Shown: piece by piece, positions 116 to 12,119 of the stretch
Layout of the letters: every line of letters begins with the position of its first letter
How positions within the stretch are numbered: position 1 is the first letter of the stretch
From: an uncultured Eggerthellaceae bacterium
GTDB taxonomy: Bacteria > Actinomycetota > Coriobacteriia > Coriobacteriales > Eggerthellaceae
Length of the DNA: 12,632 bases
Assembly (NCBI GenBank): GCA_946631805.1
Contig: CAMPAJ010000022.1
Span: 1-12,632 of the forward strand
Reading direction: 5' to 3'
Translations under genes and position numbers: made by a program
The notes under the pieces: model-generated
What the model saw: only the letters and a program-made list of their open reading frames with translations
Database searches by the model: none
What the model was told of the DNA's origin: nothing

Positions 116-142
116 GTGTGAGTAACTTTAACTGGGGTTAGG
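116..142 (+). repeat. Left terminal inverted repeat
   Basis: Begins GTGTGAGTAACTTTAACTGG. It pairs with the right-end repeat at about 709-735. The first 11 bases are identical and the rest is similar with one- or two-base gaps. Confidence 0.6.
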
Positions 143-806: not shown

Positions 807-884
807 GAACAGGGGACGGAGGTTTGTCCACGCATTTCCGGCGTGCAATGCAGAGTCCGTCCGTGAACAATCCTCCCCCTGTTC
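807..884. repeat. REP-like imperfect inverted repeat downstream of the operon
   Basis: The left arm (807-832) begins GAACAGGGGACGGAGG. The right arm (862-884) read on the other strand begins GAACAGGGGGAGGATTG. The outer nine bases GAACAGGGG/CCCCTGTTC pair perfectly, and pairing continues through GGAGG, TTGT and CACG with bulges. A small inner GCATT/AATGC stem (832-850) gives a cruciform-like fold. It resembles the dispersed GGGGACGG-type REP palindromes seen in many genomes, which is recall and not checked. It overlaps the stop codon of the small ORF ending at 883 and could act as a transcription end or mRNA 3' stabiliser for the minus-strand operon. Confidence 0.5.
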
Positions 885-1029
885 ATCCGGCGAGGCGCTC
901 GAACGGGCCGTTGTTGCTGCCGAAGTCGATAGGCGTCTTCTCGAAATCGATGCCCTTGTCCTTGGCGATGGCGTGCTCGCCTTGCGCGTAGCCCTCCCGG
1001 TCGAGGGCGTCGACGTCGGGGAGGGTCAC
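883..1029 (-). CDS. Small unidentified protein (48 aa) at the operon end, or a gene remnant
   Basis: I do not recognise this protein. A GTG at 1029 is preceded by a GGGGA Shine-Dalgarno-like run 5 bases away and opens a 48-residue frame ending in TGA. The third codon position is almost always G or C, as in the neighbouring genes, which argues for real coding. The product is acidic and soluble, with motifs GYAQGEHAIAKDKG and PIDFGSNNGPFERL. The same frame stays open upstream with plausible residues (AIEDWGDI) to just after the superoxide reductase stop, but without an ATG. It may therefore be the C-terminal scrap of a deleted gene instead of a complete small gene. It begins about 53 bp after the superoxide reductase stop and ends inside the REP-like repeat. 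Confidence 0.4.
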   Translation of the reverse strand: MTLPDVDALDREGYAQGEHAIAKDKGIDFEKTPIDFGSNNGPFERLAG

Positions 1030-1082
1030 GATGTCTCCCCAGTCCTCAATGGCATAGTGCTTTGAGAGAGCTCCCTGACACG

Positions 1083-1511
1083 CTATTCGTCGTCGTCCTG
1101 CATGCTCTCGAACATCTCGGTGGCCCATAGCCCGTGCTTGTTGCAGTAGGCGTAGATGTTCAGCGGAATATCGCCGTTAAGGGCGAACTGAGCGTAAGGC
1201 TTGATGCCTGGCCGCAACTTGACGAGCTGCGCGCCCATCTCGGTGGAAATGTAGATCCACTCGATGGAGTGATCTGGGTCCATGGGGTGCTCGTTGTCCT
1301 CGTCGCCGACGGTAACGGTGGCGATCCGCCCGCGCTTCAAAACGGGCAGGTGCTTCTCGGCGGAAGCGTTGCCGGGGTTGTCTTCGGTGTAAGGTTCGAG
1401 CACCTTCATCTCGTTCCCGCAGCACGAAGGGATTGCGCCTTGGGTGCCGAATTTCATGACGATGCTTCCGCACTTGTCGCATCGATAAAACACGTCTCTC
1501 CAAATAGCCAT
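1083..1511 (-). CDS. dfx: Superoxide reductase (desulfoferrodoxin, two-iron type)
   Basis: This 142-aa cytoplasmic enzyme reduces superoxide to hydrogen peroxide without making oxygen, usually with electrons from rubredoxin. The N-terminal desulforedoxin domain has the four-cysteine iron site C11-x2-C14 and C30-C31. The C-terminal catalytic domain has the full His4-Cys set: H54 in EKHLPV, H75 and H81 in EHPMDPDH, and C123 and H126 in YCNKHGLW. The catalytic E52 and K53 are present. Length matches the two-domain family. The start is chosen because AAAGGAGA lies 8 bases before the ATG at 1511; a longer reading to 1577 has no ribosome binding site. It follows cobW by 71 bp on the same strand and is probably co-transcribed. 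In this setting it plausibly protects oxygen-sensitive Co(I) corrinoid and iron-sulfur proteins. Confidence 0.93.
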   Translation of the reverse strand: MAIWRDVFYRCDKCGSIVMKFGTQGAIPSCCGNEMKVLEPYTEDNPGNASAEKHLPVLKRGRIATVTVGDEDNEHPMDPDHSIEWIYISTEMGAQLVKLRPGIKPYAQFALNGDIPLNIYAYCNKHGLWATEMFESMQDDDE

Positions 1512-1582
1512 GATGATATCTCCTTTCACGAGTCGACAATGCACGAAGCTGCGATGCGCCGCGCTTCGCAGTGGCAAACCTA

Positions 1583-2590
1583 TTATCCAGAAAGCAGAGC
1601 TTCGGTGATTGCCAAGTTGCGCCCAATTATCACGAGCTTTGGTTTTCCGTCATAATCGACAGGGGACGATTCCATGTCGCCATACACGTATTCTACGTGG
1701 ATCATTCCGCCTTCCGCGCTTGTAACGAAGCCCTTCGCGCGGAGCACCTGTCCTACGCGTTTCGATTCAAACAGTTCGCGCAAGCCTTGAAGATCGGCGC
1801 GGCCGAAACTGCGTTCGGGATGCACGAGGACGGACTCCATTCCTCCGATTTGGCGGACGCGATTCTGATTATGTCCATGGCGATGTCCGTGCTCGTGCTT
1901 GCAATCGTGGGCGTCCCCGTTGCCGCGAATGTCCCCGCGCTCGTGGTCGCCGCCCATGCCCGCGACGCCTCCGTTCGCAAACGCCTCCTGTGCGACGGCC
2001 AGCACTTCGAGCGCGTCCAAATCGTCCCAAGCAGTATCGACGATGGGCACGTGCCAGCCGACCTGCTCCCAAATGATCGTGCGAACGTGTTCGATTTCCG
2101 CGGGTTCTAGGAACTGCGTCCGGCTGAGAACTACGAGGCGTGCCTGTTCGAGCTGCACCGAAAACACGCCGATATCCAGGTTGATTAGTTCGTCGGCGTT
2201 TTGCGCGTTGACGATTGTAACCACGGATTCGACCGTAAGGGGCAGATGCCACAGGTCGTTGGAGCAAATGCGGACGAGCTCGTTCGGACATGCGATGCCG
2301 GTCGGTTCTATGATGATCGTCTTCGGCGTTAACTTGGACACGACTAACTCGATGGTGTCTGCAAGATCGCCCCGTAGCGAGCAGCATACGCACCCCGACA
2401 TCAATGTCCGCACTTCCAGATCGCCCGTTTGGACCAGCTGGTCGTCAATGGACGCTTCGCCCAGCTCGTTTTCTATGAGGACGGTAGATCGCGCATCCAC
2501 TCCATCGGTGAAGAGCTTGTTGATGAATGTCGTCTTTCCGGCGCCGAGGAAGCCCGCGATTATGTGGACGCTAACGTTTTCCCTATTCAT
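1583..2590 (-). CDS. COG0523/CobW-family NTPase, putative metallochaperone
   Basis: This 335-aa G3E P-loop protein belongs to the family that delivers or inserts metals such as zinc, cobalt or nickel. Visible motifs are Walker A GFLGAGKTT (residues 13-21), the metal-binding SGCVCC (C67, C69, C70), a Walker-B-like IIIEPTG (92-98), and a histidine-rich linker (about 216-240, HEHGHRHGH). The C-terminal CobW_C-like domain follows. The usual NKxD guanine-specificity motif is not intact: the expected strand reads VVLSRTQF (S156-R157-T158-Q159). Nucleotide preference may therefore be altered. The ATG at 2590 lies inside the stop region of the preceding corrinoid-protein gene (8-bp overlap), indicating translational coupling. 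An in-frame upstream ATG at 2638 would overlap more and has no clear ribosome site. Its likely clients are the zinc-dependent MtaB or the cobalt cofactor proteins; the exact metal is inference. Confidence 0.85.
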   Translation of the reverse strand: MNRENVSVHIIAGFLGAGKTTFINKLFTDGVDARSTVLIENELGEASIDDQLVQTGDLEVRTLMSGCVCCSLRGDLADTIELVVSKLTPKTIIIEPTGIACPNELVRICSNDLWHLPLTVESVVTIVNAQNADELINLDIGVFSVQLEQARLVVLSRTQFLEPAEIEHVRTIIWEQVGWHVPIVDTAWDDLDALEVLAVAQEAFANGGVAGMGGDHERGDIRGNGDAHDCKHEHGHRHGHNQNRVRQIGGMESVLVHPERSFGRADLQGLRELFESKRVGQVLRAKGFVTSAEGGMIHVEYVYGDMESSPVDYDGKPKLVIIGRNLAITEALLSG

Positions 2591-3293
2591 CGGCGACGTC
2601 CTTGTTGCGTTGTTTTTCCGCGAGAGTGGATTTCGCATACTCGACGGTATCGCGCGCGTCTTCGCAGTAGTGGTCGGCGCCTATCGAGTCAGCGAATTCC
2701 TGCGTGACGGGAAGCCCGCTTACATAGATGCGGGCCTTCTTGCGCAGGCCCGCCCGGTCAAGCGCCTCGATAACGTTGCCCATTTCCCTAATAGTGGTGG
2801 TAAGCAGGGCCGATAACCCGACGATATCGGGGTCGTGGGTTTTGACGGCTTCGACGAATCGCTCGGGCACGACGTCGATTCCCAGGTCGATTACCTCGAA
2901 CCCTTCACAGCGCAGCATGAGTGCGGCGATGTTTTTGCCGATGTCGTGCAAGTCGCCCGCCACCGTTCCGACCACCGCCTTCCCGCGAGGTTGATTGAAT
3001 TCGTCCATGTTAAGGTCGTTCTGCATGGCGAAGAGTGCGGCATGAGAAGCGCGCGAGCACATAAGAACGTCGGGAATGTAGAACTCACCGTTCTTGAAGT
3101 CGCGCCCGACGGCGCTCATGCTGGCAACAACCGCCTCCTTTAGGATGAAGTTCGCTGCGATTCCGCTATTCAGAGCGCCTTTTACCAATGACATGGTGTT
3201 TTCGGCGTCGCCATCCAAGATGGCTTCCTGAATGTGCTCGATCCAGACATGTTCGTTTTCCGTGGCGTCGGATAGATGTTTGTCCGATGGCAT
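2583..3293 (-). CDS. Corrinoid protein, MtaC/MtbC-like (second copy)
   Basis: This 236-aa methyl-carrier protein has an N-terminal four-helix B12-binding-2 cap (about 15-100) and a C-terminal Rossmann-type B12-binding domain. D114-L-H116-D-I-G119 is the DxHxxG motif, whose histidine is the lower axial ligand of cobalt. VGLSALLTTT (158-167) is the S/L motif of the cofactor-tail pocket. The usual GG motif reads VSGLPVT, with Ser at the first Gly. It has a longer, charged N-terminus and C-terminus than the other corrinoid protein at 7566-8204. The start at 3293 is preferred over 3308 because the GGAGG sits 4 bases before it and just after the regulator's stop. It lies between the PocR regulator and the CobW-like gene, overlapping the latter by 8 bp. 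It may serve a different methyltransferase or have a sensory role. Confidence 0.88.
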   Translation of the reverse strand: MPSDKHLSDATENEHVWIEHIQEAILDGDAENTMSLVKGALNSGIAANFILKEAVVASMSAVGRDFKNGEFYIPDVLMCSRASHAALFAMQNDLNMDEFNQPRGKAVVGTVAGDLHDIGKNIAALMLRCEGFEVIDLGIDVVPERFVEAVKTHDPDIVGLSALLTTTIREMGNVIEALDRAGLRKKARIYVSGLPVTQEFADSIGADHYCEDARDTVEYAKSTLAEKQRNKDVADE

Positions 3294-3308
3294 GACGCCT
3301 CCTTCCAT

Positions 3309-4631
3309 CTAGTGGCTTAACCGGTATTCGCGCGGGCTCATGCCAAAGTGTTTCTTGAACACGCGGGCGAAATAACTGGGATCGGAATATCCGAGTTGCG
3401 CGGCAACTTCGTTTACGCGGTTCTTCGGATTGGTGAGCAAGTAGCTTGCCTCGGTCATTTTGATTTGTGTTGCGTATTCCATAATCGACGTGCCCTGATC
3501 TTCTTTGAAGATCCGGCTTGCGTAGTACGGCGAAAGCTCAACGGCTTTGGCCACGTCCTGCAAGGTGAATTCGCGGTACGTGTTGGCTTTCATGAAGCCG
3601 AGCATGGCGTCGACCGTGCGTCGGCGCGGCCGCGTGTTGGCCTCGATTGCGGCGAGCTGCTGGTCGAATGTGGTCTGGGCGATCTTCCCGAGACTTTCGA
3701 GGCTGCTGGCATATCTCGCGGCATTGCAACATTCCATGTTGATGCGCATGCTCTCATCGGGGTTCACGCCGCAGTCGATGATGAGATGCGATACCGAAAA
3801 CACCAAGTCGAACACGTTTGCATAGACTTCTGCAAACGTGTTGGATGTGGAAAGGATGTCTGCGAACAAGACGGTGTAGGTTTTTCGCGCCTCTTCGAGG
3901 TCGCCGGACTTGATGAACATGGTGAGCGTTTGGATCTGGTCGTGAAGATATGTAATCGAGTTCGTGTTCAGCTTTTCTTCGAGCTTGAGGCGCATGTCGC
4001 GTTCCTGTGCGAGCAGCTCCTTTTGGTACTCGACTTCGTTTTTGCTCTTCACCTCGTTCAAGACCGAGGACATGATGGTGTTGGCTACCATCATCAGAAG
4101 CTTCGAAGCGGATTGGGCTTTGGCGGGGGAGACGACTTGCAGCTTTTTGGCGGCATTGATGAGGGGTTGCATGTCATCGGTGATTTCCCTGTTCTGCTGC
4201 TCCAATTCGACCCAGAAGAACTCTTCCGGTTCCCACATGAGTACCTGCCCGCATACGAGCGAGCCAATATGGATGTTGTCGTACGTGATGGGCGCCACCC
4301 ATTCGACCAACCCGGCGGGGCACCTGAATATGTTGGGCTCGTTGTATTCGGCGGCGAGCGCCCCGGCTCTCCGGTACGCCTCGACGCAGCGGTTTATGCC
4401 CTTCTTTTGCTCGAGCTTGCGCACGAGCTTGCAAAACTCGCAGTTCTTCTGGGCATCGGATTTCGTGAAAATTGACCTCCCGATGGGCGAGACGATGTTC
4501 GCGGTAAGCCCCGTGGCTCCGGTGAAGTCTTCGAGGAGCTTGCGCAGAAAACCTTTGTCGAGCAGATTCAGCAGCTCGTCGGTGTCGGTGCGCAATTCGT
4601 TGGACCGCCTATTGTCTGATTGCACCCTCAT
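3309..4631 (-). CDS. PocR-domain AraC-family transcriptional regulator
   Basis: This 440-aa cytoplasmic regulator probably activates the operon in response to a substrate or corrinoid-related signal. The N-terminal PocR ligand-binding domain (about 20-190) shows its conserved cysteines: C64 and C67 in NCEFC, C82 in NRCVEAY, C104 in FRCPAG. A short charged helical connector follows (about 195-225, EVEYQKELLAQERDMRLKLE). The last about 97 residues (344-440) form the double helix-turn-helix AraC domain with LQDVAKAVELSPYYASRIFK and the signature GYSDPSYFARVFKKHFGMSP. The ATG at 4631 has GGAG 4 bases upstream; the adjacent GTG at 4634 is spaced too closely. It starts 87 bp after the RACo gene and is followed at once by the second corrinoid gene, so it appears to be part of the operon it may control. 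PocR domains are known from the propanediol/cobalamin regulator PocR; the ligand here is unknown. Confidence 0.88.
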   Translation of the reverse strand: MRVQSDNRRSNELRTDTDELLNLLDKGFLRKLLEDFTGATGLTANIVSPIGRSIFTKSDAQKNCEFCKLVRKLEQKKGINRCVEAYRRAGALAAEYNEPNIFRCPAGLVEWVAPITYDNIHIGSLVCGQVLMWEPEEFFWVELEQQNREITDDMQPLINAAKKLQVVSPAKAQSASKLLMMVANTIMSSVLNEVKSKNEVEYQKELLAQERDMRLKLEEKLNTNSITYLHDQIQTLTMFIKSGDLEEARKTYTVLFADILSTSNTFAEVYANVFDLVFSVSHLIIDCGVNPDESMRINMECCNAARYASSLESLGKIAQTTFDQQLAAIEANTRPRRRTVDAMLGFMKANTYREFTLQDVAKAVELSPYYASRIFKEDQGTSIMEYATQIKMTEASYLLTNPKNRVNEVAAQLGYSDPSYFARVFKKHFGMSPREYRLSH

Positions 4632-4721
4632 CACGCTCCTAATTCACGCGCGCAACCGCGGCGTAATTTGCCGCAGACGCCGACGAAATGCATTTACGCA
4701 ATTTACGATACGACATGGACA

Positions 4722-6536
4722 TTATCTCATGCCGCCGCTTTGGCACATGACGTTGCGCTCCAAAGTCATGCCCCGAACGTACACCTCGGTGAAATGCTTG
4801 TCGTGGGCTAGCTCGATATGTTTGGTTTGTTGGCGGATTCGTTCGCCAAGCGTGCGCTCGTCGCAGTTGAGCAGGTACCGCTGCACGCCGAGTCCGGCGC
4901 CGTTGCCCATAGACCTTATGGGGACGCCCTCTATCGTGGGGAGCAAGCCTATGATCTGAGCGTTTTCCACGTTGATGTAGTTGCCGAATGCCCCGGCCAA
5001 ATAGATTGCCGAAAGGTCTTCGGGGCGGATGCCCGAAGCATCCATGACGATGCGGCACCCTGCGAAAATGGCTGATTTTGCCAGCTGGATAGCGCGGATG
5101 TCCTTAAGCATTATGCACACCCGCTCGCCTTGCGGGTGCTCATCGGCGTCGACGAGCACGAACAAGCGCCCGCCTTCGGTCTCCTCGATACGCCCGCCAA
5201 GCGGATGCTCGGTGCGAGCCTGCCCCTTGAGGAACTTGCCCTTTGCGTTGATGACCCCGCTTTTCAGCAGCATGGCAACGGTGTCGATGATGCCCGACCC
5301 GCACAGTCCTTTCGCAGCGACGTTGCCGATTACGCCAATCGCGAAGCGCTGCTCGTCTTCCAAGTATTCGACGGTTTCGATCGCCCCATCGCAGGCCCGC
5401 ATACCCGAAGAGAGTCCGGCCCCCTCCAGCGCAGGGCCGCATGCCGTCGAGGCGACCAAGTAGCCGTCTGCCGTGCGTATAGACACCTCGCAGTTCGTGC
5501 CCAGGTCGATGACCAGGTAGGGTTTCTGATCGCGGGGCAGTTCTAGCAGGCATGCCACGGTGTCCGCCCCGACGAAACCGCCGAGTAGGGGCATGAACGT
5601 GAGCAGGCACGATTCGTTCACGTCCAAGCCGAGGCCCGCTGCGCTCGTGACGACTTCGCGCGATACCAGTCCGGCGAACGGCATGCGGCCGAGCGCCTGC
5701 GGAGACAGGCCCAGGCACAGGTGCTGCATGGTGGAGTTTCCGCAGCACACGACCTCGTATATGCGATCGCGTCTGGCTTCGTGTTGCTCGCAGAGCTGCC
5801 CGATGAGGTCGTTTATCGTGGCGGCAATGGCTTCTTGCTCGCAGTCGAGTCCATCCGGATCTTGTATCACGTGGTCTATGCGACTGATTACGTCCGCCCC
5901 GTACTGTGCTTGCCGGTTGAGCTCAGATGCATGGCCGAGCAATGTGCCGTCAAACAGGTCGTAAAGAAATGCCACGACTGAAGTGGTGCCTATGTCGACG
6001 GCTACCGCCCACGCCCCAGGTTCCGTTTCGCAGCTGTATGCGTCGATGATGCTGTCGCCTGCCAGCACAAGGTACAGGTTGTTCTGCGATGGATCGCGAT
6101 AACCTGTCGAAATCTTTCTTAGAATCGGGACGGATGGTACGTCTGCTTCTCGACCTGTTTGCTCGCGTATCGCAGCGGCGCAGCACTCGAAGTCGTAGCC
6201 GCCCATCGGGGTGTTTCGTGCCGTAGCATCAACGGCGACTATGCGAATCCAGGGGTCAAACGGGGGTGCTGCTTGAAGGTCGGTTTCGAGCAGCTGATGT
6301 GTCGAGGCGTCGGGTTTCGCGAATATGCGCATGCCGTCAGTGCAGCTGTGGCGACAGGCCAGAACGCTGTTCTGAAAGCCATCGCGTTCGGCGACCGTTA
6401 CGCGGCATTTTCCGCACGTTCCATTACCGCCGCATACCAGGTTCAAAGGAATTCCCGCGGCGACGCATGCATCGGCGACAGTGGCTCCCTGGTTTACCTC
6501 GATGCTCGTATCCAGATAAGGAAAAGAGATATTCAT
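4722..6536 (-). CDS. RACo-type reductive activator of corrinoid proteins
   Basis: This 604-aa protein uses ATP binding or hydrolysis and a [2Fe-2S] cluster to return inactive Co(II) corrinoid to methyl-accepting Co(I). The N-terminal ferredoxin-like domain has C35-x5-C41-x2-C44 (CGGNGTCGKC) and a fourth cysteine at C61 (LACRHSC). A linker follows to about 170. The ASKHA-type ATPase (DUF4445) shows AVDIGTTSVVAFLYD (180-193), LVIDLGTNCEVSI (341-353), ACGPALEGAGLSSGM (365-379), GLCGSGIID and IYLAGAFGNYINVENA (511-526). The length fits RACo of acetogens. The ATG at 6536 is chosen because GGGGGA lies 4 bases upstream and the 2Fe-2S domain begins right after; the frame runs on to 6716 but that part is not domain-like. 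It follows the folate methyltransferase by 128 bp, in which a strong hairpin lies. Confidence 0.93.
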   Translation of the reverse strand: MNISFPYLDTSIEVNQGATVADACVAAGIPLNLVCGGNGTCGKCRVTVAERDGFQNSVLACRHSCTDGMRIFAKPDASTHQLLETDLQAAPPFDPWIRIVAVDATARNTPMGGYDFECCAAAIREQTGREADVPSVPILRKISTGYRDPSQNNLYLVLAGDSIIDAYSCETEPGAWAVAVDIGTTSVVAFLYDLFDGTLLGHASELNRQAQYGADVISRIDHVIQDPDGLDCEQEAIAATINDLIGQLCEQHEARRDRIYEVVCCGNSTMQHLCLGLSPQALGRMPFAGLVSREVVTSAAGLGLDVNESCLLTFMPLLGGFVGADTVACLLELPRDQKPYLVIDLGTNCEVSIRTADGYLVASTACGPALEGAGLSSGMRACDGAIETVEYLEDEQRFAIGVIGNVAAKGLCGSGIIDTVAMLLKSGVINAKGKFLKGQARTEHPLGGRIEETEGGRLFVLVDADEHPQGERVCIMLKDIRAIQLAKSAIFAGCRIVMDASGIRPEDLSAIYLAGAFGNYINVENAQIIGLLPTIEGVPIRSMGNGAGLGVQRYLLNCDERTLGERIRQQTKHIELAHDKHFTEVYVRGMTLERNVMCQSGGMR

Positions 6537-6626
6537 GCGATCCCCCGTGCAAACATGCCTGCCTCGCTTGCACGGAACACGAGCGAGGCGGGAAACGTCC
6601 ATTGGTTGTCGATTTCTAGCAGTTAG

Positions 6627-6654
6627 AGGGAAGGGGCTGTTCAGTCCCTTCCCT
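6627..6654 (-). terminator. Intergenic hairpin after the folate methyltransferase gene
   Basis: AGGGAAGGG (6627-6635) and CCCTTCCCT (6646-6654) pair perfectly, with further G-T, C-G, T-A and G-C pairs inside. It starts 10 bases after the stop codon. No U-run follows on the minus strand, so it is more likely an attenuating or RNA-stabilising structure than a full stop, given that the activator gene continues in the same direction. Confidence 0.5.
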
Positions 6655-6664
6655 TGATATCGGT

Positions 6665-7471
6665 TTAGTCGAAATCGAAGAAGCCCTTTCTGTTCGACTT
6701 GATGTAGGTCTTGCAATACTTGTCCTGGCCGAGCAGTGTTGTGGCCGTAATGACGTCTGCCATCGTCTCGCGGTTCGTGGGGTCGATGATGTAGCCGTCG
6801 ACGCCCGCCGTCATGGTCATGACGGTGAAGACGCGGTTGAGGCGCGCGCGCTTGGGCAGGCCGTACGAGATGTTCGAAAGGCCCAGGATCTGATGTGTCT
6901 CGGGATAGCTTTCCTTGATGCGCCTGTTGGTGTTGAGCACCTCGAGGCCGGCGTCGGTGATGGAGCTGACTGGCTTCACGAGGGCGTCAAAGAACATGCG
7001 GTCGTCTTCGATGCCGTCGGCCTTCAGGCGGGCGTACAGGTTGTCGACCACCTTCATGCGGTCGTCGGCCGTCTCGGGCATTCCGGTCGAGTCCATGCAC
7101 AGAAGCACGACCTTGGTGTTGTATTCCTTCACGAGTGGCGCGATGGTCTCGTAGCGCCCGTCTTCGCCCGAAATGGAGTTGATCATCGATTCGGTGCCCT
7201 TGTACACTTCGAGTCCGCGCCTGAGGGCTTCGTGGTTCGGCGAGTCGAAGCAGATGGGCGTGTCGACTTCGTCCTGGACGATGTTGACGAGCCACTCCAT
7301 GACTTCCAGCTCGTCGTGAACGCGGCTTCCGCAATTCACGTCGATGAACGTGGCATCGGCTTCCGCCTGTTTGCGCGCGAGATTCCGGATTACCGACTCG
7401 TCACGCGCATCGACCGCTTCATTCACCTCTTTGCGGCTCGTATTGATGAGCTCGCCTACGATTGTGAGCAT
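6665..7471 (-). CDS. Methyltetrahydrofolate:corrinoid methyltransferase (AcsE/MtvA type)
   Basis: This 268-aa pterin-binding TIM-barrel enzyme exchanges a methyl group between a methyl-corrinoid protein and tetrahydrofolate. Here it is expected to act as methyltransferase II, forming methyl-THF. Recognition rests on the N-terminal TIVGELINTSRKEV, FIDVNCGS (42-49), FDSPNHEAL (75-83) and GLSNISYGLP (197-206). Aligned by eye with Moorella AcsE, the folate/pterin ligands are kept: D76, N98 in INSIS, D162, and the key N200. Length matches the family (about 262-270). An AGGAGG lies 7 bases before the ATG. Archaeal and some bacterial methanol systems use a UroD-family MtaA for this step; the folate enzyme here fits the acetogen-type pathway. 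It is separated from the corrinoid gene by 94 bp containing a strong hairpin. Confidence 0.92.
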   Translation of the reverse strand: MLTIVGELINTSRKEVNEAVDARDESVIRNLARKQAEADATFIDVNCGSRVHDELEVMEWLVNIVQDEVDTPICFDSPNHEALRRGLEVYKGTESMINSISGEDGRYETIAPLVKEYNTKVVLLCMDSTGMPETADDRMKVVDNLYARLKADGIEDDRMFFDALVKPVSSITDAGLEVLNTNRRIKESYPETHQILGLSNISYGLPKRARLNRVFTVMTMTAGVDGYIIDPTNRETMADVITATTLLGQDKYCKTYIKSNRKGFFDFD

Positions 7472-7505
7472 CTTTTAGCCTCCTAGGGTACTTCGTGTGA
7501 AAGAG

Positions 7506-7545
7506 AAGCGGCGCCCTAAGGGATGTCGGCAAGCGGGCGCCGCTT
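7506..7545 (-). terminator. Strong intergenic hairpin between corrinoid and folate methyltransferase genes
   Basis: AAGCGGCGCCC (7506-7516) and GGGCGCCGCTT (7535-7545) form a perfect 11-bp stem around an 18-base loop. On the minus strand it is followed by CTCTTT, a weak U-tract. It sits 20 bases after the corrinoid gene stop. It looks like a leaky terminator or processing barrier that would raise mtaB/mtaC levels over downstream genes. Confidence 0.6.
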
Positions 7546-7565
7546 TTACCAGAACCTGATGCGAC

Positions 7566-8204
7566 TTATGCGGCTGCCATGATGGAGTCGCACAGTTCGA
7601 CGCAGGCAGAGGCGTCTTTGGAAAAGCCGTCGGCGCTGATCTCGTCGGCGAATTCCTGGGTGATGGGCGCCCCGCCGACGATTATCTTCACCTGGTCGCG
7701 AAGGCCCTCGTCAACGAGGTATTTGATGGTGGTGTCCATCTGCATCATCGTGGTGGTCAGCATCGAGGACAGGCCGACGATAGCGGGTTTGTGCTCCTTG
7801 ATGGCGGCGGCGAAGTCTTCGACCGGCACGTCGATTCCCAGGTCAACAACCTCGTAGCCATTGGACTCGAGCATGAGCACGACCAGGTTCTTGCCAATGT
7901 CGTGCAGGTCGCCGTCGATGGTGCCGATAACGACCGTGCCCTTCGTTTCCATGCCTTCTTCGCCGAGCAGCGGCTTCAGCAGTTCCGTGCCAAGCTTCAT
8001 GCAGTCTGCGGCTTCCATGACCTCGGGAACGAACATCTCGCCGTCGCGGAACAGGGGGGCAACGATGTCCATACCGCCGATGAGGCCGTCGTTGATGATG
8101 ACCTGCGGGTCGATACCCTCGTCGATCGCCTGTTGAACCAGTTCTTCGATCTCATCGGTTTCGCCGTCTACAACCGCTTCTTTGATTTCGTCCAAAATAG
8201 CCAT
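7566..8204 (-). CDS. mtaC: Methanol-specific corrinoid protein, MtaC-like
   Basis: This 212-aa methyl carrier partners the MtaB-like enzyme: it accepts methyl on Co(I) and hands it to the folate methyltransferase. The N-terminal helical cap (1-85) is followed by the B12-binding domain with D99-L-H101-D-I-G104 (axial histidine H101), GLSSMLTTT (144-152) and VGGAPIT (176-182), all canonical. AAGGAGATAGAAG precedes the ATG. The gene begins 52 bp after mtaB, so the pair is clearly co-transcribed. It is strongly acidic with a clean high-GC codon pattern, suggesting high expression. Corrinoid proteins for other methyl donors share this fold, so the methanol assignment rests on the MtaB neighbour. 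Confidence 0.92.
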   Translation of the reverse strand: MAILDEIKEAVVDGETDEIEELVQQAIDEGIDPQVIINDGLIGGMDIVAPLFRDGEMFVPEVMEAADCMKLGTELLKPLLGEEGMETKGTVVIGTIDGDLHDIGKNLVVLMLESNGYEVVDLGIDVPVEDFAAAIKEHKPAIVGLSSMLTTTMMQMDTTIKYLVDEGLRDQVKIIVGGAPITQEFADEISADGFSKDASACVELCDSIMAAA

Positions 8205-8256
8205 TCTTCTATCTCCTTATTCGAATCTGTTTGCTGATTTACAGGTCGGTGATTGT

Positions 8257-9642
8257 CTAGCCGAGCAGGTAGTCGCCAGGGCGGAAGGTGTCCAGGTCGA
8301 GCTTCGGCTTGATCTGGTTCCAGAACTCCTCGGGATCGTCGGGGATACCGGCGAGTGATTTGTTCATGCGCTTGAGCCACTTTGCGTCGCGCTTGTCGGA
8401 TTTCAGGTTGCCCTCGTCGATGGCGCGCTGGAGCTCGTCGATCGCAGCCTGGCAGGCAATCTTGGTGCGCTTGAGCGGCTCGGTTTCTGCGAGGATCCGC
8501 TCGGAGATGCGCAGCACGACGTCGGGGCGCAGGACCCACGCTTGCGGATCCAGGTAGCAGTCCGAATCCACGAGGAGGTCGCGGAAGGCCAGTTTGTCTG
8601 CTAGCTCCTTGCGCGTGTTGTACAGGCGGCAGTCGTAGATGAGCTGTTCCATATGGACGGTCGGGGCCATATCGGAAAGCAAGCGGATGTATTGGATTGA
8701 CTCGTTGGACCACAGATCGGGCACGGCGCCTGCGATGTTGCCAACGCGGCTGAGGTGAGCGCCTGCACATGTGCGGCCCTCCATGGCGATGGGCGAGCCG
8801 GTAATCGCCTTAAGGTAGGGGCCTGCGTATTCGCAGTCCTTTGAGGGGCCGACTGCGCCGCGCTCGAACGCGACCAGGGCGCGTGGAACCAAGGCGACGC
8901 GGGCAACTGCTGCGAACAGGCGCGACACGAAACCCTTTTCGGCGAGCACCATGGCGGTGTTGGCGAAGCCGCACGACGAGTCGCCCGCTGGTAGAGCGCC
9001 GTTGGCGTCGCAGAGCTCGACGATGCGATCCCAGAGGAATTCCATGTCGCGGGCGCCCATGACGCCCACGGCAAACACGAGCTTCTCAAGGTCGCCGCGG
9101 ATGATGGCGTCGTCGCTTACTTCCTTGCCGCCCGTGGACTCGATGGAGATGAAGTCGGCGCCGTCTTTTGCAGACTGCTCGATGAGGTGCTGCATCTTAT
9201 CCCAGTTCTCGCCCGAACGCATCTGGGGAGGACGCACGAATTCGCGGTTATCGTTGACCGTCATGCGCAGTGACGACTTGAGTCCGTAGGCGCTTTCGGC
9301 GTTTTCCATCTCCTCGAGCAAGATCTGGTTAACCTTGATGCCCCACTCGGGGTTGAGGGTGAATTCAACGGTCGTTTCGTATTCGAGCTGAGCGCCGGCA
9401 ATTTCGAGCTGCGCAGCGCGCTCGAGCGAGTCGTGGGCGATGTTGCGATAGATGGTGTAGGCCTTGTCGATGGTGTCTTCGTTGACTTCCATCGTGGGGA
9501 GCGTGAAGTTAAGCTCGGGCAGAACGTCTCCGCCACCGATGACCAAGCCCTTCTTTGTTGTTACGGGATTGGGGCATGAACCGAATACGAACTCATCCAG
9601 ATTGTCGATGGCAAGCTTTTCGAATACTCGCTTCTGCGGCAT
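8257..9642 (-). CDS. mtaB: Methanol:corrinoid methyltransferase, MtaB family
   Basis: This 461-aa zinc enzyme activates methanol (or possibly another small methyl donor) and methylates the cobalt of its corrinoid partner. The length equals that of archaeal MtaB, and family blocks are recognisable: ADFISIESTGGKEV, LPAGDSSCGFANTAM, RALVAFERGAVGPSKDCEY, KAITGSPIAMEGRTCAGAH and DLWSNESIQY. The three zinc ligands known for Methanosarcina MtaB (Glu164, Cys220, Cys269) correspond to E168, C224 and C270. AAGGAG lies 9 bases before the ATG. It is the first gene of the train, directly upstream of its corrinoid partner. Divergence in the C-terminal part leaves open a related substrate such as a methoxylated compound. 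Confidence 0.9.
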   Translation of the reverse strand: MPQKRVFEKLAIDNLDEFVFGSCPNPVTTKKGLVIGGGDVLPELNFTLPTMEVNEDTIDKAYTIYRNIAHDSLERAAQLEIAGAQLEYETTVEFTLNPEWGIKVNQILLEEMENAESAYGLKSSLRMTVNDNREFVRPPQMRSGENWDKMQHLIEQSAKDGADFISIESTGGKEVSDDAIIRGDLEKLVFAVGVMGARDMEFLWDRIVELCDANGALPAGDSSCGFANTAMVLAEKGFVSRLFAAVARVALVPRALVAFERGAVGPSKDCEYAGPYLKAITGSPIAMEGRTCAGAHLSRVGNIAGAVPDLWSNESIQYIRLLSDMAPTVHMEQLIYDCRLYNTRKELADKLAFRDLLVDSDCYLDPQAWVLRPDVVLRISERILAETEPLKRTKIACQAAIDELQRAIDEGNLKSDKRDAKWLKRMNKSLAGIPDDPEEFWNQIKPKLDLDTFRPGDYLLG

Positions 9643-9694
9643 CTTCGATCTCCTTTCAGCTTCCTAGTAGATGAATGCGGCGACCTGGTTTTCG

Positions 9695-9759
9695 ATAGCC
9701 GCAAGAGTTGGGGACGTCCCTGTGGTGCACTGCACAAGGAATCGCACTTTGGCGGCTAT
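9695..9759 (-). repeat. Folded segment in the mtaB leader (REP-like or structured 5' UTR)
   Basis: A perfect 8-bp outer stem ATAGCCGC (9695-9702)/GCGGCTAT (9752-9759) encloses two perfect palindromes, GGGACGTCCC and GTGCACTGCAC. This makes a three-way-junction-like fold. It lies 53 bp upstream of the mtaB start, inside the presumed leader RNA. It carries no cobalamin-riboswitch or other riboswitch consensus that I recognise. The GGGGACGTCCC core is typical of dispersed REP palindromes, so chromosomal repeat DNA is the main alternative. Confidence 0.5.
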
Positions 9760-9784
9760 TCCTTTTCGTGGTTGCCATGGGTCA

Positions 9785-9813
9785 AGTGTAGACAGGAGCA
9801 TCTTGGATGTGCA
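9785..9813 (-). promoter_or_regulatory. Candidate promoter of the methyltransferase operon
   Basis: On the minus strand, TGCACA (9808-9813) and TACACT (9785-9790) are separated by 17 bases. Each matches 4 of 6 positions of the sigma-70 consensus. This would start RNA near 9778 and give a leader of about 135 bases that includes the folded segment. The weak -35 fits an activator-dependent promoter. This is judged by eye only. Confidence 0.35.
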
Positions 9814-9840
9814 GGCCTTTAAATGCGAAAAAATAGGACA

Positions 9841-9873
9841 ATATTGCCCTTAGAGCAAAAGGGGCAATAATAT
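9841..9873. promoter_or_regulatory. AT-flanked dyad, candidate operator
   Basis: ATATTGCCCTT (9841-9851) and AAGGGGCAATAATAT (9859-9873) form an inverted repeat with small bulges around TTGCCC/GGGCAA. Its centre is about 78 bp upstream of the candidate transcription start of the mtaB operon, where activators often bind. The PocR/AraC regulator encoded in the operon is the obvious candidate ligand, though AraC proteins more often bind direct repeats. Confidence 0.4.
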
Positions 9874-9891
9874 GCTTGTTTCAGCACGATT

Positions 9892-10292
9892 GTGCTAGTT
9901 GATTTGGCTGAGCATATTGGTTTACGGAGTAATGCATCGGAGTTAGCTGCTTATGTTGTGGTGGAGTTGTGTAGAAATGCGTGCAGAAGTGCGATTTTCG
10001 CATCTAGAGTGCACATCGCGATGTCTGATTTTGCTCCATGGCGTTGCTGTGTGAATTGTGAGCGCGTCTTCTTTTGCGGTTCTCGTAGTGGCGAATATGG
10101 TCTATTTGGAATCGCCCTGCAGGATTGCTTCCGCTTAATACGGATAATATTGTCATTTTGGGGACAAAACGCGTTGCATTGGAACGGTTTTCTGACCAAT
10201 TGCTGGTGATGCCTTTGCGTTTTGCTAAGGAAGTTGAGCACGCGCGACACGACGCTTTAGAGCGCGTATTGGCTGCCATTGCCGAGGAGTGA
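9892..10292 (+). pseudogene. Probable decayed gene of unknown family
   Basis: This stretch is visibly AT-richer than its neighbours. It shows coding-like pieces in different plus-strand frames: VDLAEHIGLRSNASELAAYV from about 9898, FAVLVVANMVYLESPCRIAS (ending at a TAA near 10138), then VILGTKRVALERFSDQLL through HDALERVLAAIAEE ending at TGA 10290-10292. Two frameshifts would join them. No single frame gives a convincing complete protein with a ribosome site. I cannot name the family. The base composition suggests a different origin from the flanking genes, but plain intergenic DNA is possible. Confidence 0.3.
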
Positions 10293-10374
10293 CGTGATCC
10301 CGAGAAGGCATCCAAGCCCTTTTCCCAGAACGGGCTCGTGCGGTTGCGCTGTGTAAAATGCTGGCATCTCACGG

Positions 10375-10380
10375 TACAAT
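10375..10380 (+). promoter_or_regulatory. Candidate -10 element for the amidase gene
   Basis: TACAAT matches 5 of 6 positions of the TATAAT consensus and lies about 36 bases before the amidase start. A matching -35 is poor (TGTAAA-like, about 18 bases upstream). Confidence 0.35.
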
Positions 10381-10415
10381 AGGGCACACGATTTGAGATG
10401 GCTATTTGGTAGGCG

Positions 10416-12119
10416 GTGGGTCGGATGGGCGGTTCTTGCGAGCGATTTGGGCTTTCGTGGGCGATTTGGGCTTTCGTGGCGGCATTTCTTGTTGTTCTTG
10501 CGACGGCGATGGTTGCTCCAACATCGGCGTTTGCCACAGGCGAATCGGGTGAAGGCTTGACGGCGGGCGCTACCGAGGCAGGCTCGGGGTCGGGAGCCAC
10601 CGACGAGAAGACCGAGGCCGAGAAGGCTGCGGAAGCTGCCGCGGCGAAGAAGGCCGAGGAGGCTCGAAAAGCCGCCGAGGAAAAGAAGGCGCGCATCGCG
10701 AAGATGGCCGTCGTGAAAGACGGGCTGTACAATCTGCGCGTCGTGTCGCAGTCGAGCGCTTCGCTCGCCGTCAAGGACGGCTCGACCAAGGCGGGCGCAA
10801 AAGTGACCCCGGCGCAACGCAACCTTTCGGATTGGGCGCAAAAATGGATCGTCCTCCAAGACAAGAACACGGGCTACTACACGATTCGCAATTTGGGCTC
10901 GCGCCTGTACTTGACGGTTTCGGGCAGCGTGAAGAAGGGCGCCAAGGTCAAGCAGGCCAAGACTTCCGCATCGCTTGCTCAGAAGTGGGAGCTGGTGAAA
11001 TCTTCGGGCTCCATCGTGTTCAAATCGGCCAAGAATCCCAAGCTCGCGCTCGCGTTCGGCACCGATAAAAACGGCAATTACACCGCGACGCTCAAGAAGT
11101 ACACCGGCAAGAAGGCCCAGCTCCTGAAGCTGCGCAAGGTGGAGCCTATCGAGGACGGACACTCGTATTTCGTGCGCAGCGCCTCGGCGTCGAAGAAGGC
11201 CCTCGCCGTGAAGGACGCTTCCACGAAAAAGAACGCGAAGATCGTCCTAGACAAACGCTCGTCTTCGAGCAAGGCGCAGAAGTTCCGCATGGAGAAAACG
11301 GGTTCGAGCTGGCGCATGCAGTGCGTGCAGTCGTGCCTGTACGCCAGCGCTTCCAAGAGTGCCATCAAGCAGGTGAAAAGCTCGAAGGGCAAGGCGCGCA
11401 AGTGGAAGCTGGCGCTGAACCTGAACACGGCGACGTTCACCATAAAGTCCGCGTCGACGGGCAAGTTCGTGGACGCCAAGTCCGGCAAGCTCGCGTTGCG
11501 GGCCAAGTCCACGACGAAGTCGAAGCTTCCCGCCAAGGAGCAGCGTTTCGTGCTCGTGCCGACGTATAGCTTCACGGTGTTCCTGGACGCGGGGCACGGC
11601 CGCAACGCGTCGGGCTGGGGCGTGTACGACCCAGGCGCCGAAGGCAACGGGCGCGACGAAGCCGACCTCACGAAGGACCTGGTAGAGCGCATTGCCGCCA
11701 ACCTCGAAGGATCCGATGTACGCGTGTTCAGCGGCGTTGAGTACAGCGTGCCGTTCTGGCAGCGCAACGCCAAGGCGCGCTCGCTCAAGTGCGACGTCGT
11801 GCTCTCGGTGCATTTCGACGCCGACGGGGGCACCAGCACGTCGACGATGATCGGCTCGGGCGCTTCGACGGCGTCGCGCACGTTCAATTCCATCATTCAC
11901 CCCAGGCTCGTCTCGAGCACCGGGTTGAGCGATGGCGGCACGTCGCACCGCGGCGACATCACCGTCGTCAACGGGAGGGTGCCGTCCGTACTCATGGAAG
12001 TGGCGTTCATCGACAACTACTACAGCCTGCACAAGTACCTGGGACGCCGCGATACGGTAGCCGCCAGCATTGCCGAGGGCATCATCGTCGCCTCCAAGAC
12101 GCCGGAGCTGCAGCGCTAG
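10416..12119 (+). CDS. Secreted N-acetylmuramoyl-L-alanine amidase with lectin-like repeats
   Basis: This 567-aa cell-wall hydrolase cleaves the bond between muramic acid and the stem peptide. A signal peptide has a hydrophobic core at about 13-33 and a likely cut after SAFA (residue 40). A low-complexity Ala/Glu/Lys segment follows (about 62-97, helical or coiled). Residues about 101-380 hold ricin/beta-trefoil-like repeats, with units of the form LYNLRVVSQSSASLAVKDGS and YFVRSASASKKALAVKDAS plus QKW motifs, rich in Lys and Ser. The amidase_3 domain covers about 384-560: H394 in FLDAGHG, E415 in RDEADLT, H466 in VLSVHFDA as zinc ligands, and catalytic E528 in PSVLMEVAFIDN. All are intact. 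The start is uncertain: GTG 10416 or ATG 10425. It is monocistronic, followed by a hairpin. It may bind wall sugars through its repeats and act in growth, division or lysis of neighbours. Confidence 0.9.
   Translation: MGRMGGSCERFGLSWAIWAFVAAFLVVLATAMVAPTSAFATGESGEGLTAGATEAGSGSGATDEKTEAEKAAEAAAAKKAEEARKAAEEKKARIAKMAVVKDGLYNLRVVSQSSASLAVKDGSTKAGAKVTPAQRNLSDWAQKWIVLQDKNTGYYTIRNLGSRLYLTVSGSVKKGAKVKQAKTSASLAQKWELVKSSGSIVFKSAKNPKLALAFGTDKNGNYTATLKKYTGKKAQLLKLRKVEPIEDGHSYFVRSASASKKALAVKDASTKKNAKIVLDKRSSSSKAQKFRMEKTGSSWRMQCVQSCLYASASKSAIKQVKSSKGKARKWKLALNLNTATFTIKSASTGKFVDAKSGKLALRAKSTTKSKLPAKEQRFVLVPTYSFTVFLDAGHGRNASGWGVYDPGAEGNGRDEADLTKDLVERIAANLEGSDVRVFSGVEYSVPFWQRNAKARSLKCDVVLSVHFDADGGTSTSTMIGSGASTASRTFNSIIHPRLVSSTGLSDGGTSHRGDITVVNGRVPSVLMEVAFIDNYYSLHKYLGRRDTVAASIAEGIIVASKTPELQR

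What the first reader, a model, noticed from the sequence alone, without database searches (positions are those of the whole stretch)
883..9642. Complete methanol-type corrinoid methyltransferase operon with folate outlet, in a likely actinobacterium
The sequence shows an MtaB with E168/C224/C270, a canonical MtaC, an AcsE/MtvA-type folate methyltransferase with D76/N98/D162/N200, and a RACo activator on one strand. This set is best known from Firmicutes acetogens and, in a different form, methanogens. In a GC-rich, probably Coriobacteriia, background it points to methylotrophic C1 entry in a less expected lineage. The substrate (methanol or another methyl donor) is not fixed by sequence.
Basis: partly seen in the sequence, partly recalled or inferred. 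Interest (0 to 1): 0.75.

Follow-up and report, generated by a model that had tools for sequence, protein, structure and literature searches.

The report
Methanol-demethylating operon in an Eggerthellaceae bacterium
A gut-type actinobacterium carries a complete, intact set of genes for taking the methyl group off methanol and loading it onto folate, a trait best known from clostridial acetogens, and its nearest sequenced relatives seem to lack the enzyme that would turn that methyl group into acetate.

Summary
One strand carries an intact run MtaB (8257-9642), corrinoid protein (7566-8204), folate methyltransferase (6665-7471) and RACo (4722-6536). MtaB is sister to Eubacterium/Acetobacterium MtaB, from genera that use methanol; the three zinc ligands are kept. 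Loci of Alkalibaculum and a Lachnospiraceae share part of the same parts list, so this is a known kind of bacterial mta system. The host is close to Eggerthellaceae MAG RGIG2516 (genome G001). The substrate is most likely methanol. The less expected part is the outlet. None of the 15 held genomes of G001's genus, G001 included, has CODH or acetyl-CoA synthase above cut-off. G001 keeps a complete folate methyl branch with a formate/nitrite channel, beside a LysR regulator fused to a corrinoid domain. My best reading is methanol to methyl-THF to formate/CO2 with anaerobic respiration, rather than acetogenesis. That last step is inferred from relatives, because the window's own genome is not held. 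A more distant order member in the same MtaB clade (G018) does have CODH/ACS.

The parts
8257..9642 (-). MtaB, methanol:corrinoid methyltransferase (461 aa), zinc ligands E168/C224/C270
   Evidence: PF12176 535 bits; ligands in 50 of 50 rows incl. PDB 2i2x_A; sister to Eubacterium/Acetobacterium MtaB
7566..8204 (-). corrinoid protein 1, MtaC of bacterial type (212 aa), DLHDIG
   Evidence: PF02607+PF02310; 1y80 215 bits; homologue next to MtaB also in L001, L002, L012
6665..7471 (-). methyltransferase II (MtaA), methyl-corrinoid:tetrahydrofolate methyltransferase (268 aa)
   Evidence: PF00809, PRK07535 over cut-off; D76/N98/D162/N200; nearest named outside relatives Eubacterium aggregans 65%, Acetobacterium 58-62%
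4722..6536 (-). RACo, ATP-dependent reductive activator of corrinoid proteins (604 aa)
   Evidence: PF17651, PF14574, Fer2; PDB 3zyy 248 bits
3309..4634 (-). PocR-domain AraC-type transcription regulator
   Evidence: PF10114 137 bits + PF12833; homologues next to the mta genes in L002, L003, and its first part at the contig end of L001
2583..3293 (-). corrinoid protein 2 (236 aa), DLHDIG, starts 15 bp after PocR
   Evidence: PF02607+PF02310; motif; in its own clade of 10 rows, 100/100
1583..2590 (-). CobW-type G3E GTPase (putative metallochaperone), overlaps the end of CP2 by 8 bp
   Evidence: PF02492 115 bits + PF07683; CobW homologues at 30-31% also in L002 and L003 mta loci
1083..1511 (-). 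desulfoferrodoxin-like superoxide reductase, possibly last gene of the run
   Evidence: PF01880 52.8 bits, over Pfam cut-off; NCBIfam dfx_rbo 76 of 146.9, below cut-off; 1dfx alignment
9643..10415 (.). intergenic region upstream of MtaB (GC 0.49), the place where the operon promoter and regulator site should lie
   Evidence: composition; no Rfam match in the window up to E 1; role is inference

Best explanation
This is a bacterial methanol:tetrahydrofolate methyltransferase (mta) operon in an Eggerthellaceae bacterium. MtaB (zinc) breaks the C-O bond of methanol and methylates the Co(I) corrinoid of CP1. The folate methyltransferase moves the methyl group to THF. RACo re-reduces Co(II) that has been oxidised by accident. 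PocR-AraC switches the set on, with CP2 and CobW as accessory parts. These roles follow from homology and conserved residues; activity is not shown. In the closest sequenced relatives the methyl-THF probably cannot enter acetyl-CoA, because CODH/ACS is not found. I therefore infer that it is oxidised through MTHFR, FolD, FchA and formyl-THF ligase to formate (with ATP), with the electrons going to anaerobic respiration. This last step is inference for the window's own organism. The confidence given is for the methanol:THF operon; for the non-acetogenic outlet it is about 0.5.
For: MtaB family, ligands and sister position. MTII nearest named outside relatives are also Eubacterium/Acetobacterium. 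Overlapping parts lists: Alkalibaculum L002 has PocR, CP, MtaB, CP, MTII, CobW; Lachnospiraceae L003 has PocR, CP, MtaB, CobW; Eggerthellaceae L001 has the same order MtaB-CP1-MTII-RACo-PocR until its contig ends. Ribosome sites read by eye before MtaB, CP1, MTII and Dfx. Host close to G001: amidase 61% and 623 bits, next genome by score 38% and 249 bits; the window's right flank is collinear with G001:C20. G001: CdhC no match, CODH no match over cut-off, the only CdhD match is the mta MTII itself; genus CdhC 0 of 15 and CODH over cut-off 0 of 15. G001 run MTHFR-FTHFS-FchA-FolD-FolE-FocA, also in G255 of the genus with FocA about 4 kb away. Precedents: Desulfotomaculum kuznetsovii oxidises methyl-THF from MtaB to CO2 with sulfate (PMC5770442, passages); D. 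hafniense is described as running its methyl branch in the oxidising direction, with fumarate as acceptor for growth on vanillate (PMC3306737, passages).
Against: The window's own genome is not held. G001 is a MAG of unstated completeness. Only 2 of 15 genomes of its genus carry MtaB, one cut at a contig end. G018, in the same MtaB clade at 76%, has CdhC, CODH and CdhD, so acetogenesis is possible in part of this clade; its run next to MtaB is only MtaB-CP1. Across the order MtaB and CdhC co-occur (4 of 9 MtaB genomes against 5 of 288 others, Fisher p 4.7e-5, not corrected for kinship). No electron acceptor or formate dehydrogenase was tested. L002 and L003 show no RACo, and L003 no MTII, at E 1e-3 in the stretches held. 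In G261 of the genus the LysR-corrinoid regulator has no MTHFR match in the 2.2 kb upstream. The fork that joins the window clade to Eubacterium/Acetobacterium has 92/88 support, not starred.
Confidence: 0.8

Rival explanations
1. The operon feeds classical acetogenesis: methyl-THF enters CODH/ACS and acetate is made, as in Eubacterium limosum.
For: G018, with an MtaB 76% identical to the window's and in the same clade, carries CdhC, CdhD and CODH. MtaB and CdhC co-occur in the order.
Against: The nearest relative G001 and its whole held genus lack CdhC, and CODH over cut-off (0 of 15 each); the window groups with G001, not G018, by MtaB (99/95), amidase and flank.
Confidence: 0.25
2. Same machinery, another small O-methyl or methyl donor instead of methanol.
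For: Sequence alone does not fix the substrate; the MtaB is at most 62% identical to the named enzymes among the 120 listed; the order holds a second, deeper MtaB lineage at 43-47% identity.
Against: The named rows among the 120 listed are Eubacterium, Acetobacterium, one Sporomusa and one 'Bacillota bacterium'; Eubacterium strains and A. woodii are described as methanol users (PMC10795377 and PMC13391211, passages). The zinc ligands are invariant. O-demethylases for aromatic ethers use another MTI family (recalled).
Confidence: 0.15
3. The operon mainly supplies methyl groups for methionine synthesis or disposes of toxic methanol, without energy gain.
For: Methyl-THF is the general methionine methyl donor (established knowledge); the folate branch in G001 could run in the reducing direction.
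Against: A dedicated regulator, activator and two corrinoid proteins are a large outlay for one-carbon supply; with FTHFS and MTHFR methyl-THF could be made from formate anyway. Indirect only; methionine synthase was not searched.
Confidence: 0.15

Closest known systems
mtaB-mtaC-mtaA methanol system of Eubacterium limosum/callanderi/maltosivorans and Acetobacterium woodii
   Same: MtaB 58-62%, MTII 58-65% for named Eubacterium aggregans and Acetobacterium, separate small corrinoid protein, folate as acceptor; genes named mtaB/mtaC2/mtaA there, arranged as in A. woodii (PMC10795377, passages)
   Different: Host is an actinobacterium; RACo, PocR, CP2 and CobW lie in one run in the window (full operons of those species were not compared here); nearest relatives lack CODH/ACS over cut-off
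Methanosarcina MtaB-MtaC (PDB 2i2x)
   Same: MtaB family and Zn ligands E/C/C
   Different: 35.8% identity; far below the methanogen equivalog cut-off (380 of 720 bits); methyl goes to folate, not coenzyme M
Methanol oxidation by MtaB in the sulfate reducer Desulfotomaculum kuznetsovii
   Same: MtaB feeds methyl-THF that is oxidised with an external acceptor (PMC5770442, passages)
   Different: That MtaB groups with methanogens (same passages); the host reduces sulfate; no acceptor was tested here
Desulfitobacterium hafniense O-demethylation plus bidirectional methyl branch
   Same: Methyl branch used in the oxidising direction, fumarate as acceptor (PMC3306737, passages); 4o0q, the best PDB hit of the window's MTII, is recalled to come from this species
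   Different: Its genome has CODH/ACS, and the entry described there is aromatic O-demethylase (same passages)

Membership tests
Bacterial methanol methyltransferase MtaB (PF12176) | Full-length PF12176 match over cut-off | tested here: met
   534.8 bits of 25, profile 3-459 of 460
Bacterial methanol methyltransferase MtaB (PF12176) | Zinc ligands Glu, Cys, Cys | tested here: met
   E168, C224, C270 aligned with 2i2x_A, 50 of 50 rows; that these are the zinc ligands of 2i2x is recalled
Bacterial methanol methyltransferase MtaB (PF12176) | Groups with MtaB of methanol-grown acetogens | tested here: met
   Sister to Eubacterium/Acetobacterium rows, 92/88, unstarred
Bacterial methanol methyltransferase MtaB (PF12176) | Methanol-dependent methylation of its corrinoid protein | not testable with these tools
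   Needs purified proteins
Methanogen MtaB equivalog (NF040651) | Score over 720 bits | tested here: not met
   379.7 bits
MtaC-type corrinoid protein | B12-binding_2 + B12-binding domains with DxHxxG | tested here: met
   CP1 and CP2 both
Methanogen MtaC equivalogs (NF040655, NF040669) | Score over 420 or 450 bits | tested here: not met
   CP1 162 and 162 bits, CP2 126 and 129 bits
Methyltransferase II with THF as acceptor | Pterin-binding fold with Asp/Asn pterin residues | tested here: met
   PF00809, PRK07535 over cut-off; D76, N98, D162, N200; the roles of these residues are recalled
RACo activator | 2Fe-2S N-terminus, RACo middle and ASKHA C-terminal domains | tested here: met
   Fer2 26, PF17651 164, PF14574 239 bits
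Acetogen (Wood-Ljungdahl) context | CODH/ACS in the same genome | tested here: inconclusive
   Own genome not held. In 15 of 15 genus genomes, G001 included, no CdhC match and no CODH match over cut-off; G018 has both
Acetogen (Wood-Ljungdahl) context | Folate methyl branch (FTHFS, FolD/FchA, MTHFR) | tested here: met
   In relative G001, one run of genes; FTHFS in 8 of 9 and MTHFR in 8 of 9 MtaB-bearing order genomes. Not tested in the window's own genome

The most novel reading that the evidence does not exclude
[quoted passage not shown] Methanol enters by a corrinoid system, is oxidised on folate to formate with ATP gained at formyl-THF ligase, and formate leaves through FocA. Electrons go to respiratory reductases, which are many in known members of this family. 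A LysR regulator fused to an MtaC-like domain would read the methylation or redox state of the corrinoid and set the folate branch. This would be anaerobic methylotrophy that is neither acetogenic nor methanogenic, in actinobacteria.
Probability: 0.35. Interest if true: 0.65.

Novelty: new member of a known kind. Interest (0 to 1): 0.45.

Why it matters
Methanol from pectin is described as food for acetogens and methanogens (abstract of PMC13391211 in the listing). An intact methanol entry in Eggerthellaceae adds another possible consumer. If the outlet is formate or respiration rather than acetate, it would give these bacteria a C1 electron donor and a formate cross-feeding role, and would set them against methylotrophic methanogens in competition for methanol. 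For E. lenta the acetogenic pathway is itself unproven (PMC10234575, passages), so a genus with the methyl branch but no CODH/ACS makes a clean test case. E. lenta and Slackia are noted for very many molybdopterin oxidoreductases (34 and 25 genes; PMC3306737, passages), so electron acceptors for such a pathway are plausible.

Tried and rejected
Recent transfer from Firmicutes: operon genes have GC 0.55-0.61 and GC3 0.68-0.84, like the flanking amidase (0.62; 0.83), so there is no compositional sign of a recent arrival; an old transfer remains possible since MtaB and MTII both have Eubacteriaceae among their nearest named outside kin. Plasmid carriage: MtaB has no match in the plasmid collection. 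RNA element: no Rfam match in the window up to E 1. The end pattern of the inverted-repeat element at the left edge was sought in the 67 loci fetched: no match. A corrinoid-protein tree did not resolve whether CP2 is orthologous to the PocR-adjacent corrinoid proteins of L002/L003. [quoted passage not shown] Literature searches pairing Eggerthella, Eggerthellaceae, Coriobacteriia or Coriobacteriales with MtaB, methanol, methyltransferase or methyl branch listed no paper whose title or abstract start describes this operon. Of the papers listed there I opened passages of four (PMC10673518, PMC10234575, PMC9686372, PMC3306737); the other eight were seen as listings only. The library holds only CC-licensed papers.
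Full report
What is there. The - strand of the window carries, in order, MtaB (8257-9642), corrinoid protein CP1 (7566-8204), a pterin-binding methyltransferase II (6665-7471), RACo (4722-6536), a PocR-AraC regulator (3309-4634), a second corrinoid protein CP2 (2583-3293), a CobW GTPase (1583-2590) and a desulfoferrodoxin-like ORF (1083-1511). Gaps are 15-128 bp, with an 8-bp overlap of CP2 and CobW, which fits one transcription unit (inference). Clear ribosome sites stand before MtaB, CP1, MTII and Dfx (read by eye). The starts chosen for RACo, CP2 and CobW are mine; for CP2 the 236-aa start agrees with database entry P0123.

MtaB. PF12176 covers the whole protein. The only PDB relative found is Methanosarcina MtaB 2i2x_A, 35.8% identical over 447 columns. 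E168, C224 and C270 align with its Glu, Cys and Cys and are present in 50 of 50 rows. Next come entries at 58-62%, among which the named ones are Eubacterium limosum/callanderi/maltosivorans (61-62%), E. aggregans (59%) and Acetobacterium (58-62%) (the best 120 of 6476 are listed). In a 49-row tree the window sits in a starred clade of 12 (100/100) with Eggerthellaceae L001, G018 and unnamed rows. This clade is sister to the Eubacterium/Acetobacterium rows at 92/88, not starred. Other order members (G006, G142, G130, G040, G070) carry a separate, deeper MtaB lineage at 43-47%.

Partners. CP1 and CP2 both have DLHDIG. CP1's best structure is 1y80 (215 bits), a 'predicted cobalamin binding protein' that I recall as the Moorella MtaC; methanogen MtaC 2i2x_B scores 137. 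MTII is over cut-off for PRK07535, and its nearest named outside relatives are Eubacterium aggregans (65%), Acetobacterium (58-62%) and Sporomusa; an entry named Eggerthellaceae bacterium stands at 69%. So MtaB and MTII have the same nearest named outside kin. RACo matches 3zyy (248 bits).

The same kit elsewhere. L002 (Alkalibaculum MAG) has PocR-CP, then MtaB-CP-MTII-CobW; L003 (Lachnospiraceae TWA4) has PocR-CP-MtaB-CobW; L001 (Eggerthellaceae MAG RGIG2516, goat jejunum) has MtaB-CP1-MTII-RACo-PocR up to its contig end. L002 and L003 show no RACo, and L003 no MTII, at E 1e-3 in the 15.6 and 21.4 kb held. G018 has only MtaB-CP1 together. The six other named loci with a corrinoid protein next to or near MtaB (L004-L006, L008-L010) lack PocR and CobW matches at E 1e-8, and L007 has MtaB alone. 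So the PocR-corrinoid protein pair and CobW recur in the nearer, clostridial loci, and this window is a member of a known kind. In one search, CP2 and nine unnamed relatives form their own clade (100/100). Its link to the PocR-adjacent corrinoid proteins of L002/L003 is unresolved.

Host. The right-flank amidase (10416-12119 +) finds G001 at 61% and 623 bits, and the next genome by score at 38% and 249 bits (32 of 297 order genomes match at 1e-20, most over the amidase domain only). The window's right flank is collinear with G001:C20 into the next coding stretch. G001 is the genome of L001, titled Eggerthellaceae. In G001 the mta operon lies on another contig beside DUF262-like genes (name recalled). 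The MtaB-bearing end of G299 lies beside the same genes as in L001, so the locus is in the same surroundings in two genomes. In the window it is in different surroundings, next to the amidase.

The outlet. The window's genome is not held, so I used relatives. MtaB occurs in 9 of 297 order genomes and acetyl-CoA synthase CdhC in 9 of 297 (two of these, G010 and G088, at 42-56 bits only). Four genomes have both: G006, G018, G070 and G130. Fisher p is 4.7e-5, or 1.3e-5 without the two weak ones, not corrected for kinship. Among the 9, FTHFS is in 8, MTHFR in 8, CODH over cut-off in 5 and CdhD over cut-off in 6. One of those six CdhD matches, in G001, is the mta MTII itself. In G001 no CdhC and no CODH over cut-off (two matches of about 24 bits) were found. 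In its genus CdhC is in 0 of 15, CODH over cut-off in 0 of 15, with 6 of 15 giving weak matches of 23-26 bits, and MtaB in 2 of 15, one cut after 53 residues by the contig end. The control genomes for CdhC ring only in two archaea, but the search did find CdhC in other order genomes, so it can see the bacterial form.

G001 does have, on one strand of one contig, MTHFR with the PF12225 C-terminus, FTHFS, FTCD_C (FchA-like), FolD, GTP cyclohydrolase I and a formate/nitrite channel. Divergent from it stands a 518-aa LysR regulator whose C-terminal part is B12-binding_2 plus B12-binding. The same arrangement is in G255, where FocA stands about 4 kb further on. In G025, MTHFR stands beside the start of the regulator, which the contig end cuts. 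In G261 the regulator is present, but the 2.2 kb upstream of it hold no match to MTHFR or the rest of that operon. The regulator was found in 4 of 297 order genomes, one partial; G001, G255 and G261 are in G001's genus. A methyl branch with a formate channel and a corrinoid-linked regulator but no CODH/ACS is best read as methyl oxidation to formate, or as formate use for methyl supply. The direction is inference.

Precedent and print. Moorella mtaA1B1C1 rises on methanol (PMC13391211, passages). Eubacterium strains that grow on methanol carry mtaB/mtaC2/mtaA (PMC10795377, passages). In Butyribacterium, overexpressing mtaA, mtaB and mtaC is cited as having raised methanol use (PMC9847067, passages). 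Oxidation of MtaB-derived methyl-THF with an external acceptor is described for D. kuznetsovii (PMC5770442, passages), and an oxidising methyl branch with fumarate for D. hafniense (PMC3306737, passages). Among sulfate reducers mtaB is patchy, which its authors put down to possible transfer (PMC7808614, passages). The Wood-Ljungdahl pathway of E. lenta is called not biochemically validated (PMC10234575, passages). Two cultured members of the Coriobacteriia order Anaerosomatales do not use methanol (PMC9686372, passages). Searches listed no paper recognisable as describing an Eggerthellaceae mta operon; most of those listed were not opened.

Verdict. Enzymology: a methanol:THF methyltransferase operon, about 0.8. 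Outlet: non-acetogenic in this organism about 0.5; full formate model 0.35; acetogenesis 0.25. Shown: genes, residues, kinship, co-occurrence. Inferred: substrate, operon unity, flux direction, roles of CP2, CobW and Dfx.

Noticed in passing
L043:9984-11540 (G001:C3), also L064:12196-13749 (G255), L065:2243-3796 (G261): LysR regulator fused to a full MtaC-like corrinoid domain, divergent from a folate methyl-branch operon in G001 and G255 (not seen beside it in G261); 4 of 297 order genomes, one partial. One literature search listed only an archaeal review, not opened. Possible corrinoid-state sensor.
   Followed up: partly
window 116-138 and 713-735: 23-nt inverted repeats, 87% complementary, flank a 574-bp stretch; looks like a small mobile element or remnant of an insertion sequence (type not tested).
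   Followed up: partly
window 10416-12119 (+): N-acetylmuramoyl-L-alanine amidase with ricin-type lectin repeats, divergent from the operon; 61% identical copy in G001, followed there by the same next coding stretch.
   Followed up: partly
window 883-1128 (-): 81-aa ORF just downstream of the desulfoferrodoxin-like gene with no Pfam or NCBIfam match; may be a gene remnant or chance ORF.
   Followed up: no
L042:240-1253 and L067:3593-11026 (G018): G018 has another RACo-MTII pair close to FocA and FTHFS, and a possible further methyltransferase ORF (family not tested) upstream of an FchA-FolD-MTHFR run, hinting at more than one corrinoid methyl entry.
   Followed up: no
G006, G142, G130, G040, G070 (L013-L017): A second, deeper MtaB lineage (43-47% identity to the window's) in other genomes of the order; CdhC found in G006, G070 and G130.
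   Followed up: partly
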